DNA from: Nitrospira sp.
GTDB taxonomy: Bacteria > Nitrospirota > Nitrospiria > Nitrospirales > Nitrospiraceae
Direction: 5' to 3'
Assembly: GCA_030653545.1 (NCBI GenBank)
Contig: JAURZE010000022.1
Coordinates: forward strand, 496,001 to 560,000
Length of the DNA stretch: 64,000 bases
The position numbers and the translations under genes were made by a program. Under the pieces are notes generated by a model. That model did not search any database. It saw only the letters and a list, made by a program, of their open reading frames with translations, and was not told where the DNA came from. Below are positions 9,166-19,770 of this stretch, one piece after another. Each line of letters begins with the position of its first letter. The first letter of the stretch is position 1.

Positions 9166-10629
9166 ATGACCGGTCATCGCTCCGATCTCAAGAGCATCGC
9201 CCGTCGTGCCATGATTGAGCGCGGCCTCTTGCCGGACTTTTCAGCCGCGGCAATGGCTGAATTAGGCCGTATCCAGACACCCGCCACGGACCAGTCCTCT
9301 TCCCTCCGCGACCTGAGAGCACTGCTGTGGGCATCGATCGACAATGACGATTCCCGGGACCTGGACCAACTCACAGTCTCCACACCGCACCCGGACCGGT
9401 CGGTGAACATCCTGGTTGCGATTGCCGATGTTGACGCGCTCGTCACGAAAGATTCCGCCCTGGATGCGCACGCCCGGCACAATACGACATCGGTCTATAC
9501 CTCCGGCGATCTCTTTCCCATGCTGCCGGAAAAACTCTCGACGGATCTGACGTCGCTGGGCGAAGGGCAGGACCGTCTCGCGCTCGTCGTGGAGTTCGTG
9601 GTCGCGCAGGATGGGGCGGTGCTCAGTTCCACGCTCTACCGGGCTCTGGTCCATAACCATGCCAAGCTGGCGTATAACGCGGTGGCCGAATGGCTGGCGG
9701 GAACCGGTCCTGCGCCAGAACGGATCACGACCGTTCCTGGACTTGACGGTCAGCTTCGTCTTCAAGATCAGGTCGCGCAGCGCCTCAAAGCACGGCGGCA
9801 CCAGCAGGGCGCGCTCAGCCTTGAAACGATTGAGCCGCGAGCCGTCTTTGAAGGCGAGGTGCTGACTGCGCTCCGGGTCGAGCAGAAGAACCGCGCAAAG
9901 GAACTCATCGAAGATTTCATGATTGCGGCCAACCAGGCCACCGCATCCTACCTGAAGAGTAAGGGCGTGCCGTCGTTCCGTCGCATCCTGCGATCGCCTG
10001 AGCGCTGGCAGCGGATCATCGAGGTCGCGGCGCGCTGGGGCGAATCCTTGCCGGGGGAACCCAACGCACAGGCACTCGAAACGTTCCTCGTGAAACGGCG
10101 GCAGGCCGATCCCCTCAGATTTCCGGATCTCTCCCTGGCGATTGTGAAGCTGATCGGCCGGGGCGAATATGTGCTCGACCGCTCGACGGACGGCGCGCCG
10201 GAACATTTCGGACTGGCCGTGAAAGGCTACACGCACTCCACCGCACCCAACCGGCGCTTCCCCGATCTGATCACCCAGCGATTGGTCAAGGCTGCGCTGA
10301 CCGGCTCGCCTGCCCCCTATCGTCTCGATGAATTGGAGTATCTGGCAAGCCACTGCACGGAGAAGGAGGACGATGCCGAACGGGTCGAGCGGCAACTGCG
10401 CAAATCCGCCGCAGCCCTCTTGCTGGAGCCGCTGATCGGACAACGGTTCGATGCCATTGTGACAGGCACCTCCGACAAGGGTACCTGGGTTCGGCTGCTT
10501 GAGCCGCCGGTGGAAGGGAAACTGACGACGGGTGCGAACGGACTTGATGTGGGAGACACCCTGCACGTACAACTCGTGAGCACAAACGTTGAACGCGGGT
10601 ATATCGATTTTTCCCGAGTCGGAATGTGA
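9166..10629 (+). CDS. RNase II/R-family exoribonuclease (RNB domain)
   Basis: A 487-residue protein whose core is the RNB catalytic domain: DLRALLWASIDNDDSRDLDQLTV carries the cluster of aspartates (around residues 62-70) that binds the two Mg2+ ions, followed by VAIADVDALV and the FGLAVKGYTHSTAPNRRFPDLITQR block near residue 360. A small C-terminal S1-like fold (FDAIVTGTSDKGTWVRLLEPPVEGKL) follows. RNase II and R are usually 640-800 residues with N-terminal cold-shock domains; here only about 50 residues precede the RNB domain. Similar short RNB proteins occur in cyanobacteria and other phyla. Likely role: 3'-5' RNA degradation or tRNA/rRNA end processing. Confidence 0.88.
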   Translation: MTGHRSDLKSIARRAMIERGLLPDFSAAAMAELGRIQTPATDQSSSLRDLRALLWASIDNDDSRDLDQLTVSTPHPDRSVNILVAIADVDALVTKDSALDAHARHNTTSVYTSGDLFPMLPEKLSTDLTSLGEGQDRLALVVEFVVAQDGAVLSSTLYRALVHNHAKLAYNAVAEWLAGTGPAPERITTVPGLDGQLRLQDQVAQRLKARRHQQGALSLETIEPRAVFEGEVLTALRVEQKNRAKELIEDFMIAANQATASYLKSKGVPSFRRILRSPERWQRIIEVAARWGESLPGEPNAQALETFLVKRRQADPLRFPDLSLAIVKLIGRGEYVLDRSTDGAPEHFGLAVKGYTHSTAPNRRFPDLITQRLVKAALTGSPAPYRLDELEYLASHCTEKEDDAERVERQLRKSAAALLLEPLIGQRFDAIVTGTSDKGTWVRLLEPPVEGKLTTGANGLDVGDTLHVQLVSTNVERGYIDFSRVGM

Positions 10630-10714: not shown

Positions 10715-12058
10715 TCACTGCTTCAGCACGCATTTTTCGTACAAGTCTTTCATCCTGGCTGCGGGATCGTATCGTGCTTTGAGCCTCCGATACGCTGGTT
10801 CATTGAACAACTGCCAGAACTCTTCGCGAGAATAGTACGCATTAGAGTAGAGAGATTTTTTGCCGTGCAGCTCCCGAACCTTGGCTTCGACTTTCTTGTC
10901 GAAATACCCGTCCTCATGATCGGTGCTCACAGCATCCCAGAATCCGAAGTTGACGTAGAGCTTCCCGGGTGTCATCGGATATAACGGGTACGAGGCAGAC
11001 GGATCATCGGCCATGACCGGACAGATCCAGACAGGCTTGATGCCGATCTCCCGATTGAAAAACCCGGCAAACTCCGCCGCATGCTCAAGCGGGATTTCGA
11101 CGTCTTGAATCACGGCCTCCTGCCGACCGGTCAGCGCCTTGGCCACCCGCTGCGCAAAGGGTGAACGGTTAAACCGGCTGCGCAGCTTCCAATACACCGT
11201 GGAACAGAGACGCTTCCTGCCCCAGAGCCACCTCACCACAGGATACTGGACGAAGAAGTGCTTTGAGCACCAGAACCAGTCGGTATCCCATCGCCACAGG
11301 TAGTCGTGGATCGTCAGATAATCGACGGTCTTCTGCTGGATTGATCGATAATAGATATGGCGATAGGTGTAATCGCTGAGCCATTCGGCCCGGTCGACAC
11401 ACTCGCCCGTCGTGATATAGAGCTCGTGCTCCTCGAACATCGTACCGTCGACGAAATCCACCTGCCTGTCCCGGCATACAAGCCCCAGTGCGTGAAAATA
11501 GCTATTCAGATCTGAGTATCGCTCGTGCCGGAGCTTGACGAATTTCTTGACGGGAACAAGCTGCACGTTCACTTTGAGCGCATAGCCCAACGTGCCATAG
11601 GAGTTGGCAAAACCAAAGAACAGATCTTTGTGTTCATTGTCTTTGGTGGCGATGACGACCGTGCCGTCGGGTAGGAGGATGTCAATTTCAAGAATCGTTT
11701 CGTGTACAAAGCCATGCGTGAACGAGGAGGACTCAATCCCCACTCCAGCCAAGGCTCCGCCGATGGTAATCGACTTGAGCTGGGGCACGACGGCCGGCAT
11801 CAACTGGAACGGCAGCGTTTCACGAACCAGGTCATCGTAGGTCGTCATTCCTTCGACCTCGGCAACCCGCTCGTCCGGATCAATGCGAATCACCTGATTG
11901 AAGTGACGCACATCCAGCTTGTGCCGCGGCTCTGGAGTTCGTTGCCGGAACAGATTGGAGGTCGTCTTTTCGAGGGCGAGGGTTCCGGTCTGATTTGAAG
12001 TACGAAGGAATTGGGCGACTGCCTCCCGCTTTCGAACATACTCGTCAGGCGAGATCAT
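10715..12058 (-). CDS. FAD-binding oxidoreductase, TmsA/DIM (24-sterol reductase) type
   Basis: A 447-residue flavoprotein. Residues about 25-190 form a PCMH-type FAD domain (FNQVIRIDPDERVAEVEGMTTYDDLV, then VPQLKSITIGGALAGVGIESSSFTHGFVHETILEIDILLPDG). The remainder resembles the DWARF1/DHCR24 cap and C-terminal end. It starts five bases after the stop of the methyltransferase gene with no ribosome-binding site of its own, so the two are translationally coupled. In actinobacteria, TmsA paired with TmsB makes 10-methylstearate: TmsB adds a methylene group to an unsaturated acyl chain and TmsA reduces it. The same pairing here suggests this protein reduces a methylene-fatty-acyl intermediate. 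That role is inferred from family and context. Confidence 0.85.
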   Translation of the reverse strand: MISPDEYVRKREAVAQFLRTSNQTGTLALEKTTSNLFRQRTPEPRHKLDVRHFNQVIRIDPDERVAEVEGMTTYDDLVRETLPFQLMPAVVPQLKSITIGGALAGVGIESSSFTHGFVHETILEIDILLPDGTVVIATKDNEHKDLFFGFANSYGTLGYALKVNVQLVPVKKFVKLRHERYSDLNSYFHALGLVCRDRQVDFVDGTMFEEHELYITTGECVDRAEWLSDYTYRHIYYRSIQQKTVDYLTIHDYLWRWDTDWFWCSKHFFVQYPVVRWLWGRKRLCSTVYWKLRSRFNRSPFAQRVAKALTGRQEAVIQDVEIPLEHAAEFAGFFNREIGIKPVWICPVMADDPSASYPLYPMTPGKLYVNFGFWDAVSTDHEDGYFDKKVEAKVRELHGKKSLYSNAYYSREEFWQLFNEPAYRRLKARYDPAARMKDLYEKCVLKQ

Positions 12059-12063
12059 GACCG

Positions 12064-13173
12064 TTACCGGACCGATTCATAGCCACCCAACAGGCCATGC
12101 TTTGACATGACAATCTGCCAGAGATGGATGGTGCGGGCGCGGAACGCCCCCGCGAGAGACAGCAGGTAGTAGCGCCACATCCGGAAGAACCGCTCGTCGA
12201 AGGTGGAGTCCCATTCCCCCCGATGCCGATCGACATTCTCCTGCCATGCCAACAATGTGCGGTCATAGTCGGGGCCGAAATTATGCCAGTCTTCCATGAC
12301 GAAGAGTCCGTCCATCGCGGCGCCCAGTTGCGCCACCGAAGGTAGCATCCCGCCGGGAAAGATATATTTATCGAACCACGGATCGCTGGTGCTCACCGAG
12401 GCATTGTTGCCGATGCTATGGACCAACACCAACCCATGCGGCTTCACGGTCCGCTGAGCCACCTCCATGAGCGTGCGGTAATTCTTAAATCCCACGTGCT
12501 CGCAAATGCCAATGGCGGCAACTTTGTCGAATTCCCCGGTCGCTTCACGATAGTCGCTGAGCCGGATTTCAACAGGAAGCCCGGCACACCAACGACGCGC
12601 ATAGGCCGCCTGCTGCTCGGAAATATTGTAGGCCACCACCGAACAACCATAGTTAGTCGCGGCAAAACGGGCGAATCCTCCCCACCCGCAGCCCAGCTCC
12701 AGCACCCGTTCGCCCTTCTTGAGCTGTAGTTTGCGACAGATCAAATCCAGCTTGTGCTCCTGTGCCTCCGCCAGCGTTTGTGCCTTCTTCCAATAGCCAC
12801 AGGTATATTGCATGTGCGGGCCGAGCATCTGTTCGTAAAACTCGTTGCTCAGGTCATAGTGACATTGCGCAACCCGTTTCGAGCGCGCCTTATCCTGCAT
12901 ATTGAAGAGGCGAGCCTTGAACGTATTCAGGAGGAGGTGCTTATCGTGTACGGCTTTGTCGAGTTCGGCAGAGTCAACCAGGAAAAAGAACTCGTCCAGT
13001 TGCTTGGCATCCCACCAGCCGTCCATGTAAGACTCCCCGAGTCCGAGCGAACCCTCGGCAAGGACACGCGTATAGAAGCGCTCATCATGAATCATGATAT
13101 CCCCGGACTCAGGGCCGCCAATGTGCACGCGGGCTCGTTCGAGTAATTCCTGAATCGTATGCTGTGGGTTCAT
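12064..13173 (-). CDS. Cyclopropane-fatty-acid-synthase-type SAM methyltransferase (TmsB-like)
   Basis: About 369 residues, close to the usual CFA synthase length. The SAM-binding site VLELGCGWGGFARFA lies near residue 155, preceded by the substrate-domain segment HYDLSNEFYEQMLGPHMQYTCGYW that is diagnostic of the family, and followed by ICEHVG. The enzyme transfers a methyl group from SAM to the double bond of an unsaturated phospholipid acyl chain. The start at 13173 has GTGAGGA at good spacing; the alternative ATG at 13191 has a poorly spaced site. Coupling to the FAD oxidoreductase and proximity to a desaturase suggest methyl-branched rather than cyclopropane products. A simple CFA synthase role is the alternative. 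Confidence 0.9.
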   Translation of the reverse strand: MNPQHTIQELLERARVHIGGPESGDIMIHDERFYTRVLAEGSLGLGESYMDGWWDAKQLDEFFFLVDSAELDKAVHDKHLLLNTFKARLFNMQDKARSKRVAQCHYDLSNEFYEQMLGPHMQYTCGYWKKAQTLAEAQEHKLDLICRKLQLKKGERVLELGCGWGGFARFAATNYGCSVVAYNISEQQAAYARRWCAGLPVEIRLSDYREATGEFDKVAAIGICEHVGFKNYRTLMEVAQRTVKPHGLVLVHSIGNNASVSTSDPWFDKYIFPGGMLPSVAQLGAAMDGLFVMEDWHNFGPDYDRTLLAWQENVDRHRGEWDSTFDERFFRMWRYYLLSLAGAFRARTIHLWQIVMSKHGLLGGYESVR

Positions 13174-13310
13174 ATCGAGGTCCTCACTCATCCCGCCTCG
13201 AAGATGGTGCGCGGGTATACGTCACACCGGTGCTGACTCGCGTGAAGCCCGAGCGCGCATGGATGACCGCACGAGAAGATTGACCGCGCGACTGAACGGC
13301 CCCGAAGTAC

Positions 13311-14171
13311 TTAGCTGCCGGGAGCGTAGATATTGGCCTTGATGTGATCGGGAGGGGTTCGAAGATCCCACACAATCCGAAACCAGGAGAGCAGGATCAA
13401 GAGATAGTAGGAAAAATCCACCTCCCACCAGCGCCACCCCTGATTGACCGATGACTGATAGTAGTGATGGTTGTTGTGCCAGCCTTCTCCGCAACAGAGG
13501 ATCGCCAGGATGAAGCTGTTCCGGCTTCCATCGCGGGAGTCGTATCGCACACGTCCAATGATGTGGGTCAGGGAGTTGATGAAGAAGGTGCAATGATAGA
13601 GCACGGTCGTGGAAATAAAGAATCCCCAGACGAGACCGGGAAATCCCCACACCATATAGATCAGCAGCGCATACAAGAACGGCGGCACATAGTGAAACCG
13701 GTTGAGGAGGCGCAACTCCGGATACTTCACCAAGTCTTTCACAATGGCGAACTCAGTGCGATCGTATTCGTTGGTCAAGAGCCATCCGACATGGGAATAC
13801 CAGAACCCTCGCTGCACCGGGGAGTGGCGATCTTGTTCCTGGTCGGAGTGCTTATGGTGATGCCGATGGTGGGCAGCCCACCACAACACCCCCTTCTGCG
13901 CCGACGTCATCGCAAGCACAGCCAAGAGAAACTGAAAGACCCGGCCCGTTTTATAGGAACGATGGGAAAAGTAGCGGTGGTACCCTGCCGTGATGGCCAA
14001 CATCCTCAGGTAATAGCTGGCAATGGCCAGCACAATGAGCTCAACGCTGACTCCGGTCTGAATCGCCCACAGGCCCATCAGGTGAACCAGTATGAACGGA
14101 ATCGCGGTGGCCCATTGAATGGTCGCCGATCCCGATTGCTGAGTGATGGACTCGCTGGACAAGCTATTCAT
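13311..14171 (-). CDS. Acyl-lipid/acyl-CoA fatty-acid desaturase
   Basis: A 286-residue integral membrane di-iron desaturase. All three histidine boxes are present: HRYFSH (near residue 64), HHRHHH (near 101-106) and HNNHH (near 235). Hydrophobic pairs before and between them form the four membrane helices. The enzyme introduces a cis double bond into a saturated acyl chain using O2 and reduced electron carriers. It is transcribed toward the methyltransferase/FAD pair with a 120-base gap, so it can supply the unsaturated substrate. The position of the double bond (delta-9 or another) cannot be read from sequence. Confidence 0.92.
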   Translation of the reverse strand: MNSLSSESITQQSGSATIQWATAIPFILVHLMGLWAIQTGVSVELIVLAIASYYLRMLAITAGYHRYFSHRSYKTGRVFQFLLAVLAMTSAQKGVLWWAAHHRHHHKHSDQEQDRHSPVQRGFWYSHVGWLLTNEYDRTEFAIVKDLVKYPELRLLNRFHYVPPFLYALLIYMVWGFPGLVWGFFISTTVLYHCTFFINSLTHIIGRVRYDSRDGSRNSFILAILCCGEGWHNNHHYYQSSVNQGWRWWEVDFSYYLLILLSWFRIVWDLRTPPDHIKANIYAPGS

Positions 14172-14811
14172 AAGTCGCTCTCATCGTTCACCGCCCTCTT
14201 CACACATTCGTGTAGGGTTAGAAAGGTCGACCGCGGTAAGCGCCGCTATTGTACTTTATCGGACGGAGTCTGAAAAGGAGGTAATGTCACGGGAAGAAAA
14301 ATAATTAGCCTGCCCTAAAGGGCGGTTAAAAGTGATCCGTTACTCATTTTACGGCCTACGTTTCGACAGCGACCACATGCCGCTCACTCAACCCTCCGGT
14401 CCACCCCGCACGCGGCATGAGAATACACATCTTTTATGACTCATTCAGCGGCAGCGCTCGTGGGAGAACGGTACCACAATCTCCATCCCAATATGAGCGC
14501 CAACATATCGCTTGACCTCATGTGTCTTCAAGCACAGTATATATAGAAGACGTTTCTGCCTCGCCGACTGTTTGATCCATCGCGCGGCCCGCGCCTTTCT
14601 TATGCGATTGATGCTCCAGTCTCCGCCGCCCGAACGCCAGCAGCACTTGTAGTGCTTTTCCATATCCCTGATGCGCTCTGCTTTCTCTACATGCCTTCGA
14701 CGCACGGGACGCCCTCCGGAGATTGAAAGGCCTCACCATGCAGACCATAACAGGCAGGCTATTCCAGATACACATTGTCCGAAGATGACAGGCTCATGAG
14801 GAGATATCGCG
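14172..14811. other. Long intergenic region
   Basis: No gene is convincing over 640 bases. It includes a very small open frame behind a perfect AAGGAGGT (ATG at 14284, six codons), a short GCCCTAAAGGGC inverted repeat just after it, and an open frame on the minus strand around 14518-14775 without a ribosome-binding site or coding character. Confidence 0.5.
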
Positions 14812-16322: not shown

Positions 16323-16934
16323 TCAGACGATAGCGGAGCCTCCGGCGATAAGGAAATATCCTGTGTTATAGAACATATGGAGAGCGATAGGAGGAACCAC
16401 CGACCCCGACCGATCGCGTAGGACTCCAAAAACTAGAGAAGGAAACAGTATTAGCAATGCCCAAAGAAGCGAGTGTGTCGGGATGTGGGCACCGATGAAG
16501 AAGATCGACGTCAATAGATTCGCTAGGCTTATCCCAATGACCGTTCGCCTTCCCCAGGCACGACGCACCAGAACTCCTTGCAAACATCCCCGGAACAAGA
16601 GCTCCTCGACAATCGGCTGCCACACCGCAGCCATCAGGAACCCCACAGACAAAATGCGCGGCCAGGGTAACGGCTGAACTGCCACCAGCAAGGGGAACAC
16701 ACCAAAGAAAGCCGTTCCTACGGCCAGGCTGGAGAGAAAGGCGGAGGAACGATAAAACCCCTTTACAGGCTTGCGCCCCAAGAGCTCATAGAGAACTGAT
16801 GCAACAGAAGCCATGGACGCACTGACATCTCGACGAGGCTCCAGAGGGTTACCTGGAGACCTCGGCGGGATAATGACAGAAGAGTGGGGTCTCACATCAG
16901 CAATCCCGGCTTCGAGCTCTCCAACACAACGCAC
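16323..16934 (-). CDS. mrtJ: JDVT-CTERM system intramembrane protease (MrtJ-like, CPBP family)
   Basis: A polytopic membrane protein of the CPBP/Abi glutamic-type protease family. Motif 1 EELLFRG lies near residue 110 and supplies the catalytic Glu pair and Arg; later membrane segments carry HIPTHSLL and a final ALHMFYN histidine. The gene overlaps the 3' end of the JDVT-CTERM subtilase gene by 38 bases, matching the known pairing of MrtJ with a JDVT-CTERM protein, in which the protease is thought to remove the C-terminal anchor. The 5' end is uncertain: the longest frame starts at a GTG (16934), and an ATG around residue 41 is possible. Confidence 0.85.
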   Translation of the reverse strand: MRCVGELEAGIADVRPHSSVIIPPRSPGNPLEPRRDVSASMASVASVLYELLGRKPVKGFYRSSAFLSSLAVGTAFFGVFPLLVAVQPLPWPRILSVGFLMAAVWQPIVEELLFRGCLQGVLVRRAWGRRTVIGISLANLLTSIFFIGAHIPTHSLLWALLILFPSLVFGVLRDRSGSVVPPIALHMFYNTGYFLIAGGSAIV

Positions 16935-19770
16935 CGAGCGTCAGCAGAAGTAGGCTCGGCATGAAGGCATCATTCGAGCCCACCGGCGCAATCGTACAGC
17001 CTCCGCCACCACCGGAAGAACCTTGAGAGCCCCCGCCCCCTGATGAAACCGGACCGTCAAACAACGCGGTCACGGTGGCAGCCGTATTGACGGCGCAGGG
17101 ACCGACTCCCGTACAACCACCCCCGCTCCAACCAGTAAATGTAGAGCCGGAGTTTGCGGTCGCCGCAAGAGTCACAATAGTGCCATCCTGGAAGTTACCG
17201 TTGCAGGTCGCACCACAGTTAATTCCAGCCGGTGTTGACGTGACTGTTCCTGATCCGGCTCCCACCGTTGCCACCAAAACATTGAAGGTATTCGGCGGCG
17301 GAGGAAGTGTGAAGGTTGCTGTCACCGTCGCATCCCCGGTGACCTGACAAGTTCCAGTACCGACACAATTGCCCCCGTTCCACCCGGAGAACACAGACCC
17401 GGCGGCAGGGGTCGCGGTAAGCGTTACTGTCGTGCCTTGGCTGAATTGATCCGTACAGGTCACTCCGCAGTTGATACCCCCACTATTCCCTTGCGGCGCA
17501 GACGTCACGGTTCCGCTTCCGGCCCCGCTCTTGGACACCGTCACAGTAAACGGTGCCGGCGGCGCCAACGTGAAGGTGGCTGTCACACTAGCGGTCGTGG
17601 ACAATGAGCACGTACCGATACCGGTGCACCCGCCCCCGCTCCATCCGGAGAACACTGATCCGGCCGCAGGAGTAGCCGTCAGCGTTGCGCTCGCTCCTGC
17701 GGGAAACTGGAAATTGCAGGTAGCGCCGCAGTTGATCCCGTTCGGTGCCGATGTGACCGCCCCCAAACCAGTCCCCGCCTTATTCACAGTGACGGCAAAC
17801 GTGCCGATACTATCGAGCGCCGCGCGGGCATTGAGTCGGCGACCCGTCAGCGTCTTACCGGCCAGCGCGGGGAGCACATCGCCGGTATTGATGATGGCAT
17901 TGCGGATCTGCGCCACGGTTAAGGTTGGATTGGCAGACAGGAGGAGCCCCACGACACCCGTCACGTGCGCCGTGGCCGACGACGTGCCGCCCAGGAAACC
18001 ATAGTCCGTCACTCCAGAGGGGGGACCCGACACGCAGTCAACACGCAGGTTGTCAAGATACGCACCGTCATCTGTGCCAGCAGCGTCCGAGAAAAAGTTG
18101 ATCCGGAAGCGAGCGGACAGGTTGTCATCGCGTATTTCTTCCAGGGGACGGCTCCTGAATAAGCCGGCCGAGGAGGAGGTAAACTTGTTCCCGATTGTCC
18201 AGGTTGTGCCTCCATCTCCGGAAGCCTGCACCAGGATACCGTCACCATTGCCGGCAGAAGCCAGGCGCACATCGCCGATCAGCAGACAGCCATGTCGACT
18301 AGCCGTACTAAAGACCGGACCCGTGGCAAATGAATTGGTACTGTTTAAATAGTTGCCCCCCGGACTGTCCGTGAGGCTGTATGGAGGACTTACAGCTTGC
18401 GCATCGGTGAAGGCCCAACCATTATTGGTACCACTGAAGATATACCCAAGCCCGCCTGGGTTCGAATCAAATGTGTGTAAAAGGATGTTGGTCACATTCT
18501 GCGTCGGATAGGTCGTATAGGTTTCTTCAGTCCCCGGCGCTGCGATTTGAACGGATGTCGCGCCAAAGCTCGAAAAATACGACAGGCCGTCGTTCTGGTT
18601 CGTCGCAGCCACCGCGATGACGTTCGGCAGAGCAGGCCCGCACGGAGTCGCCACGCTGTACTGCGCCGGGTACCATGGCACCAGATCGTTGTCCTGAGCA
18701 TCGTTACCGGCTGCAGCAAGGACCATAATGCCCGCCGCGTTGGCGGCACTCAGCATGTTGTATTCTGCCTGACTGCACGCTCCCCCAAGCCTTCCAAAAC
18801 TCGCATTGATTACGCGGGCGCCCTTTGCAATTGCATAGTTGCCTGCAGGAATGAACCCGGCGGCTGTCACGTGTTCAAACGCTACCCCGCTTCCCGCTTT
18901 GAGAGCCATGAGTTTTGCTGTCTGCATGACGCCGGTTATGCCGAGACTATTATTCCCCGCCGCTGCCATAGTGCCTGACAACGCCGTCCCATGCCCCAGC
19001 ATGCCAGTGGGAAAGTGCACTACGTCCATCGGGTCGCTATCGTTATTGGAAAAGTCATACCCATAGTAATCATCCACGTAACCGTTTCCGTCGTTATCAA
19101 TACCGTCATTCGGTATTTCTCCAGGGTTTGTCCACATATTAGGCGCAAGGTCTGGATGGTCGTAGGCGATTCCTGTATCTATGACGGCGATAATGACGTT
19201 TGAACTACCGGTGGTAATGTCCCAGGCTTCAACCGCATGAATGTCGGCGCCAGCAGTACCCGTCACACCTCGAACCGTCTGGCCCGTGTTATGAAGCCCC
19301 CATAACTGGCTGAACAGCGAGTCATTGGGAATGCCTGCGAGTTCATAGATATAGTTTGGTTCGGCATACTCGACCGCGGGGTCTTGCCGATAGGTCGCAA
19401 TAGCAGCTTCGACTGAGACTCCTTTCCCCAGCTTGAGATGATGCAACCGATGGGAGCCTCCGATGAACGACTTTATCGCCTGCGTGCCAGTCTTTGTCTC
19501 GGCAGCTGCAATGGTGGCAGCCGATGCTCCGTCGCGGAACTTGACGATCACTTCTCCGTCCTTGTAGCGGGCATGCATTTTCTGACCGCCAGAAATGGCC
19601 GTGAGGCCCTGATCTGGTCGAGTGATGCGAGTAGTTTCTGCATTGGCCCAGACACACCAGAGCGCGGAAAGTGCTACGAGCGAGTATAGGCCTACCCTCG
19701 TCACATGTTTTCTCCGCCAATAATTACCGACGATGTCCTTGGAACCAGACCATAACCTTCGCCTCACCAT
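16897..19770 (-). CDS. Secreted subtilisin-like serine protease with JDVT-CTERM sorting signal
   Basis: A 957-residue exported protease. After a signal peptide (near residues 26-44) comes an inhibitor-type propeptide (residues 68-140), then the S8 catalytic domain with Asp198 (AVIDTGI), His260 (GHGTALSG) and the Ser of GTSSATA at 595-600. An insert of about 150 residues between His and Ser looks like a jelly-roll/lectin-type module. Three tandem 80-85-residue repeats follow (each with INCGxxC, FSGWsGGgC and TVTATF), like divergent InlB B-repeats. The C-terminus is a Ser/Gly-rich linker, GGGGGCTIAP, a hydrophobic helix and a basic tail: a JDVT-CTERM sorting signal. Two starts are plausible (19770 and a GTG at 19704). 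Confidence 0.9.
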   Translation of the reverse strand: MVRRRLWSGSKDIVGNYWRRKHVTRVGLYSLVALSALWCVWANAETTRITRPDQGLTAISGGQKMHARYKDGEVIVKFRDGASAATIAAAETKTGTQAIKSFIGGSHRLHHLKLGKGVSVEAAIATYRQDPAVEYAEPNYIYELAGIPNDSLFSQLWGLHNTGQTVRGVTGTAGADIHAVEAWDITTGSSNVIIAVIDTGIAYDHPDLAPNMWTNPGEIPNDGIDNDGNGYVDDYYGYDFSNNDSDPMDVVHFPTGMLGHGTALSGTMAAAGNNSLGITGVMQTAKLMALKAGSGVAFEHVTAAGFIPAGNYAIAKGARVINASFGRLGGACSQAEYNMLSAANAAGIMVLAAAGNDAQDNDLVPWYPAQYSVATPCGPALPNVIAVAATNQNDGLSYFSSFGATSVQIAAPGTEETYTTYPTQNVTNILLHTFDSNPGGLGYIFSGTNNGWAFTDAQAVSPPYSLTDSPGGNYLNSTNSFATGPVFSTASRHGCLLIGDVRLASAGNGDGILVQASGDGGTTWTIGNKFTSSSAGLFRSRPLEEIRDDNLSARFRINFFSDAAGTDDGAYLDNLRVDCVSGPPSGVTDYGFLGGTSSATAHVTGVVGLLLSANPTLTVAQIRNAIINTGDVLPALAGKTLTGRRLNARAALDSIGTFAVTVNKAGTGLGAVTSAPNGINCGATCNFQFPAGASATLTATPAAGSVFSGWSGGGCTGIGTCSLSTTASVTATFTLAPPAPFTVTVSKSGAGSGTVTSAPQGNSGGINCGVTCTDQFSQGTTVTLTATPAAGSVFSGWNGGNCVGTGTCQVTGDATVTATFTLPPPPNTFNVLVATVGAGSGTVTSTPAGINCGATCNGNFQDGTIVTLAATANSGSTFTGWSGGGCTGVGPCAVNTAATVTALFDGPVSSGGGGSQGSSGGGGGCTIAPVGSNDAFMPSLLLLTLGALCWRARSRDC

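What the first reader, a model, noticed from the sequence alone, without database searches (positions are those of the whole stretch)
10715..14171. Desaturase, CFA-type methyltransferase and FAD reductase: likely methyl-branched fatty-acid pathway
Three adjacent genes could, in order, unsaturate an acyl chain, add a SAM-derived methylene and reduce it to a methyl branch, as TmsB and TmsA do for 10-methylstearate in actinobacteria. Nitrospira strains such as N. moscoviensis are reported to contain 11-methyl-hexadecanoate, for which this operon could be the source.
Basis: partly seen in the sequence, partly recalled or inferred. Interest (0 to 1): 0.7.

Follow-up and report, generated by a model that had tools for sequence, protein, structure and literature searches.

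The report
Nitrospira operon for methyl-branched membrane lipids
Some nitrite-oxidising Nitrospira bacteria carry a three-gene operon that very probably turns unsaturated membrane fatty acids into methyl-branched ones, using the same kind of reductase as tuberculostearic-acid-making actinobacteria but a different methylating enzyme; it is not the source of the branched lipid reported in Nitrospira moscoviensis, whose genome lacks it.

Summary
On the minus strand lie an SCD-type desaturase (14171-13311), a CFA-type methyltransferase (13191-12064) and a FAD-binding-4 protein (12058-10715). The order recurs in about 25 Nitrospiraceae genomes of four genera, under purifying selection. The flavoprotein belongs to the BfaA (=TmsA) family: 44-53% identical over nearly full length to the partners of actinobacterial BfaB (=TmsB). 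The methyltransferase is not BfaB (34-37%); it is an E. coli-type Cfa (49.5%) in a strongly supported clade whose members all sit beside a BfaA-type gene in Nitrospirota, Acidobacteria, Myxococcota and others, apart from stand-alone Cfas. So BfaA-type reductases have at least three unrelated methyltransferase lineages as partners.

The best mechanism is desaturation, SAM-dependent methylenation, then NADPH/FAD reduction to a methyl branch (inferred; no chemistry shown).

The link to N. moscoviensis fails. A genome whose single contig is 4,589,485 bp, exactly the published N. moscoviensis size, has neither the reductase (E<=10) nor the Cfa-type enzyme (E<=1e-60). By the same criterion N. japonica NJ1 and strain KM1 carry the operon, so the idea is testable in cultures. 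In the window's genus the operon is patchy (7 of 79), with relics showing loss. New variant of a known kind.

The parts
13311..14171 (-). Membrane fatty-acid desaturase of the stearoyl-CoA desaturase type (His boxes HRYFSH, HHRHHH, HNNHH)
   Evidence: PF00487; nearest solved structures are mouse SCD1 4ymk (E 5.8e-33) and 4zyo. Operon-type copies are 66-100% identical; nearly all Nitrospira also hold a separate ~49% paralogue
12064..13191 (-). CFA-type SAM-dependent fatty-acyl methyltransferase, E. coli Cfa subfamily, reductase-paired clade
   Evidence: PF02353, PRK11705 540 bits, 49.5% to E. coli Cfa, model TM 0.88/0.95 to 6bqc; bicarbonate-site residues C131, E231, H258, I260, Y309 kept; tree
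10715..12058 (-). BfaA/TmsA-family flavoprotein (VAO/PCMH fold), putative methylene-acyl reductase
   Evidence: PF01565; 44-50% to the partners of BfaB in Nocardia, Tsukamurella and Nonomuraea and 48-53% in other actinobacteria including Thermomonospora; model pLDDT 89, closest folds cytokinin oxidase and DprE1
14248..14276 (-). Possible sigma-70-like promoter upstream of the desaturase (weak)
   Evidence: 9 of 12 consensus match; no more such sites than in shuffled sequence
9166..10629 (+). RNB-type exoribonuclease gene, convergent neighbour; marks the ancestral locus
   Evidence: beside the operon in G068, L046 and L047, and beside the lone desaturase in G002, G039 and G040

Best explanation
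[quoted passage not shown] The SCD-like desaturase puts a cis double bond into an acyl chain. The Cfa-type enzyme then transfers a SAM methyl to one alkene carbon of a membrane phospholipid and releases an exo-methylene chain rather than closing a cyclopropane ring. The BfaA-type flavoenzyme, reduced by NADPH, adds hydride to the methylene to give a saturated methyl branch. Shown here: family identity, conserved operon, partner clade, conserved catalytic residues, selection. Inferred: substrates, branch position, chain length, and methylene instead of cyclopropane as the product.
For: The flavoprotein is 44-50% identical over nearly full length to the genes beside BfaB in Tsukamurella, Nocardia and Nonomuraea, and 48-53% in Amycolatopsis, Thermomonospora and others. 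That family's chemistry is known: BfaB alone gives 10-methylene-stearate, and BfaA reduces it with NADPH and not NADH (PMC5660069, PMC7791843). MT and FAD are adjacent in about 25 Nitrospiraceae genomes and in Acidobacteria, Myxococcota, Verrucomicrobia and others. The paired Cfa-type enzymes form one clade (support 100/99.6) that excludes 13 Cfa-type enzymes of other Nitrospirota without a FAD gene within the 1.5 kb searched, and 11 other Cfas. The residue before the catalytic Glu is F in 22 of 24 unpaired Cfas but C, T, L or M in nearly all reductase-paired lineages. Three Amycolatopsis loci independently have a desaturase beside bfaAB.
Against: No lipid data were found for any strain known to hold the operon. 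The methyltransferase is nearer to true cyclopropane synthases than to BfaB and keeps every catalytic residue of a cyclopropane synthase. Some gammaproteobacteria carry BfaA-type genes with no methyltransferase beside them, so the family may have other substrates. The desaturase is missing beside the pair in G011 and G069, and remains where MT-FAD is lost in others.
Confidence: 0.75

Rival explanations
1. An ordinary cyclopropane operon: the Cfa-type enzyme makes cyclopropane acids from the desaturase product and the flavoprotein acts on another lipid.
For: 49.5% identity to E. coli Cfa; all bicarbonate-site residues kept; PRK11705 equivalog score above cut-off.
Against: The clade is defined by always sitting beside a BfaA-family gene, and its nearest stand-alone relatives fall outside it; the F preceding the catalytic Glu is lost; BfaA's only known reaction is reduction of the methylene intermediate.
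Confidence: 0.13
2. One reading: this operon is the source of 11-methyl-hexadecanoate in N. moscoviensis.
For: N. moscoviensis has 11-methyl-16:0 as a major acid (PMC3660363 Table 3; PMC5516240).
Against: The genome of exactly N. moscoviensis length lacks the reductase and the paired Cfa-type enzyme and has only the ~49% desaturase paralogue. It has instead a desaturase - methyltransferase - BfaB-like methyltransferase cluster (44% to Thermomonospora BfaB) and another BfaB-like gene.
Confidence: 0.02
3. The flavoprotein works as a dehydrogenase on a methylated chain, leading towards furan or conjugated acids, as UfaD does after UfaM in Rhodobacter.
For: It has the fold of VAO/PCMH oxidases (cytokinin oxidase, DprE1). 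The same genome has a UfaD-UfaO-UfaM-like cluster elsewhere (L038).
Against: The UfaD-like gene of this genome is amine-oxidase-type (PF01593) and lies elsewhere; the window protein belongs to the BfaA family, shown to reduce with NADPH; no DUF1365 (UfaO) gene is adjacent.
Confidence: 0.06

Closest known systems
bfaAB (= tmsAB) operon of actinobacteria, 10-methylstearate (tuberculostearate) synthesis (PMC5660069, PMC7791843)
   Same: BfaA-family FAD reductase, 44-53% identical over nearly full length, beside a CMAS-family methyltransferase with the same bicarbonate-site residues
   Different: Gene order MT-FAD instead of FAD-MT; methyltransferase 34-37% to BfaB and from the E. coli Cfa subfamily; SCD-type desaturase at the head of the operon (beside bfaAB in only three Amycolatopsis loci seen here); other phylum
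Betaproteobacterial/gammaproteobacterial MT-BfaA pairs (Variovorax, Thiobacillus and others; found here)
   Same: BfaA-family reductase about 47-55% identical, order MT-FAD
   Different: Methyltransferase of a third lineage (34% to the window's)
tmpBA of gammaproteobacteria (10-methylpalmitate; PMC7791843)
   Same: Two-gene methylase-plus-flavoprotein logic, order MT then reductase
   Different: TmpA is described as geranylgeranyl-reductase-like and unrelated to BfaA; not compared by sequence here
UfaM-UfaD-UfaO furan fatty acid pathway (PMC7380195)
   Same: CMAS-type methylase plus a flavoprotein acting on phospholipid chains
   Different: UfaD-type flavoprotein of another family plus DUF1365; a similar cluster lies elsewhere in this genome (L038)
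E. coli Cfa cyclopropane synthase (6bqc)
   Same: Subfamily, fold, 49.5% identity, catalytic residues
   Different: No reductase partner; GMFEHVG in place of GICEHVG around the catalytic Glu

Membership tests
bfaAB / tmsAB pathway | BfaA-family FAD_binding_4 reductase, full length | tested here: met
   44-53% over nearly full length to the partner of BfaB in actinobacteria
bfaAB / tmsAB pathway | adjacent CMAS-family methyltransferase with Cfa bicarbonate site | tested here: met
   5-bp gap; C131, E231, H258, I260, Y309
bfaAB / tmsAB pathway | methyltransferase orthologous to BfaB | tested here: not met
   34-37% identity; separate strongly supported clades
bfaAB / tmsAB pathway | makes methylene then methyl-branched acyl chains | not testable with these tools
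   no chemistry; no lipid data found for operon holders
E. coli-type Cfa (cyclopropane synthase) | subfamily sequence and catalytic residues | tested here: met
   PRK11705 540 bits over cut-off 400; inside the Cfa radiation
E. coli-type Cfa (cyclopropane synthase) | cyclopropane product | not testable with these tools
   FAD-paired clade is separate from stand-alone Cfas and has lost F238
SCD/Ole1-type desaturase | family match and three histidine boxes | tested here: met
   SCD1 4ymk E 5.8e-33; His boxes aligned
UfaM/UfaD/UfaO furan pathway | amine-oxidase-type UfaD and DUF1365 UfaO adjacent | tested here: not met
   absent from this operon; a similar set is on another contig
source of N. moscoviensis 11-methyl-16:0 | operon present in N. 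moscoviensis | tested here: not met
   G003 (4,589,485 bp): no FAD hit at E<=10, no MT at E<=1e-60

The most novel reading that the evidence does not exclude
An E. coli-type cyclopropane synthase was converted once into a methylene-forming enzyme by joining a BfaA-type reductase, and the pair then moved between phyla (Nitrospirota, Acidobacteria, Myxococcota, Verrucomicrobia). The residue before the catalytic Glu (E. coli F238), lost in each reductase-paired lineage, is part of the switch from ring closure to methylene release.
Probability: 0.35. Interest if true: 0.65.

Novelty: new variant of a known kind. Interest (0 to 1): 0.5.

Why it matters
It would extend tuberculostearate-type lipid chemistry to nitrite oxidisers and other phyla, with a methyltransferase of separate descent. 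It warns against treating 11-methyl-hexadecanoate as the product of this operon or as one trait across Nitrospira. It offers an alignment-based candidate for what decides between cyclopropane and methylene products in the Cfa family. Two strains that appear to carry it (N. japonica NJ1, KM1) are in pure culture, so a single fatty-acid profile would test it.

Tried and rejected
Direct BfaB orthology of the methyltransferase: rejected by tree and identity. Attribution to N. moscoviensis: rejected by genome. Deriving the gene from resident Nitrospirota Cfa: rejected, those fall outside the clade. Convergent-signature test: of 131 columns fixed in unpaired Cfas, three differ in the Nitrospira-type, BfaB and proteobacterial lineages (1.4 expected if independent); requiring also the small L068/L117 lineage, two (0.2 expected); suggestive only. 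Lipid profiles for N. japonica, KM1 or N. lenta: none found. Ammonia oxygenase check by PF02461 was uninformative because its controls did not ring. The promoter scan gave no more sites than shuffled sequence.

Full report
What is there. Pfam gives PF00487, PF02353 and PF01565. The window is contig 22 of a 3.94-Mb, 39-contig genome, in the same genus-level group as the genome identified below as N. moscoviensis.

Conservation. Searching 175 Nitrospiraceae genomes with the flavoprotein finds it in 27 genomes of four genera, one of them a fragment. The MT has full-family matches in 26. In nearly every locus the order is desaturase-MT-FAD; in G011 and G069 the desaturase is missing. dN/dS against G068 and G023 is 0-0.15 for all three genes. 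So the operon is real and under purifying selection.

The flavoprotein. A tblastn search of plasmid records hits Nonomuraea, Nocardia, Tsukamurella and Prescottella at 44-50% identity; in Tsukamurella it is the gene directly before a 'class I SAM-dependent methyltransferase' at the recR-dnaX locus. A scan of one-per-species genomes adds Amycolatopsis, Thermomonospora, Microbispora and others at 48-53%, and many beta- and gammaproteobacteria, Acidobacteria and others. The actinobacterial pairs fit the published bfaAB description (earlier called tmsAB): BfaB methylenates 9-unsaturated chains and BfaA reduces the methylene with NADPH (PMC5660069, PMC7791843). I did not have the experimentally tested BfaA or BfaB sequences themselves; the comparison is to their neighbours in related actinobacteria. 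The predicted structure (pLDDT 89) has the VAO/PCMH fold, nearest to cytokinin oxidase and DprE1.

The methyltransferase. It is 49.5% identical to E. coli Cfa and only 34-37% to BfaB; its model matches E. coli Cfa 6bqc best (TM 0.88/0.95). In a tree of 59 enzymes BfaB, the beta/gammaproteobacterial partners and the Nitrospira-type partners fall in separate supported groups. With 13 Cfa-type enzymes from other Nitrospirota added, none of which has a BfaA-type gene within the 1.5 kb available, the 20 reductase-paired Cfa-type enzymes form one clade (100/99.6) that excludes them and 11 further Cfas. Two more paired enzymes (L068, L117) form a separate group. In the flavoprotein tree the BfaB-paired rows are one clade, while the Cfa-paired and proteobacterial-type rows each need four changes. 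At least three methyltransferase lineages have therefore been joined to one reductase family.

A possible signature. All five bicarbonate-site residues are kept. Only three columns are fixed in unpaired Cfas yet differ in the Nitrospira-type, BfaB and proteobacterial lineages: E. coli G116, M237 and F238; the last two stand directly before catalytic E239. The count is only weakly above chance (3 against 1.4 expected; 2 against 0.2 when L068/L117 are required too), so I treat it as a lead. N. moscoviensis's own CMAS enzymes read GMCEHVG and GMVEHVG, while a third Nitrospira genome (G064) reads GMFEHVG.

The desaturase. Nearest solved structures are stearoyl-CoA desaturases. Nearly all Nitrospira also carry a ~49% paralogue; the operon type is restricted to operon holders and a few that have lost MT-FAD. 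In three Amycolatopsis loci a desaturase lies just after bfaAB.

The N. moscoviensis question. Published sizes are 4,589,485 bp for N. moscoviensis M-1, 4,084,817 for N. japonica NJ1 and 4,509,223 for strain KM1 (PMC7522533 Table 2). Genomes G003, G124 and G126 are single contigs of exactly these lengths. The identification rests on length alone, but to the base. G003 has no match to the flavoprotein even at E<=10, no Cfa-type partner at E<=1e-60 and only the ~49% desaturase paralogue. G124 and G126 have the whole operon (FAD 63/62%, MT 74/75%, desaturase 66-68%). N. moscoviensis has 11-methyl-16:0 as a major acid, N. marina a trace, and N. defluvii is not listed with it (PMC3660363). So its lipid comes from something else; its desaturase-MT-BfaB-like cluster (L175) is one candidate, but without a BfaA-type reductase.

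History. In the window's genus only 7 of 79 genomes have the flavoprotein. In G002, G039 and G040 the flanking genes and the desaturase are in place but MT-FAD is gone from between the desaturase and the RNB gene. G002 still holds pieces of the MT start and a FAD end with a stop codon; G132 has a desaturase followed by a FAD remnant. With the same neighbour kept in two related genomes of another genus group (L046, L047), this points to old presence at this locus and repeated loss.

Verdict. Gene functions and order of steps: likely right (0.75). The link to N. moscoviensis: contradicted. Product, branch position and methylene-versus-cyclopropane outcome: not shown. The finding is a new variant of the bfa pathway with a substituted methyltransferase.

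Noticed in passing
L038:5728-12819 (own genome, contig C28): Amine-oxidase-type flavoprotein, DUF1365 protein and CMAS methyltransferase in the order UfaD-UfaO-UfaM of R. palustris, with a second CMAS enzyme and a DUF1295 protein upstream: a likely furan fatty acid cluster in the same organism.
   Followed up: partly
L175:9674-13029 (G003, taken as N. moscoviensis): Desaturase (354 aa), methyltransferase (301 aa) and BfaB-like methyltransferase (432 aa, 44% to Thermomonospora BfaB) in one cluster; candidate for its 11-methyl-hexadecanoate, reductase unknown.
   Followed up: partly
L211:6650-7000 (G002) and L136:6410-6718 (G132): Decayed pieces of the MT and FAD genes beside an intact operon-type desaturase, showing loss of the pair.
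   Followed up: yes
L098, L108, L052, L057, L060, L064: BfaA-type genes of gammaproteobacteria with no methyltransferase beside them; in L098 and L108 between a small NAD(P)H-dependent FMN-reductase-like gene and a rhodanese-like gene (family guesses from sequence by eye).
   Followed up: no
L220:2428-5125 (Streptomyces virginiae plasmid): Desaturase, nitroreductase/quinone-reductase-family protein and Cfa-type enzyme in a row: perhaps another desaturase-methylase-reductase cassette.
   Followed up: no
window 16897-19770 (-): 957-aa protein that looks like a subtilisin-type secreted protease with three tandem ~70-aa repeats and a C-terminal Gly-rich, hydrophobic, Arg-containing tail like a sorting signal (read by eye).
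   Followed up: no
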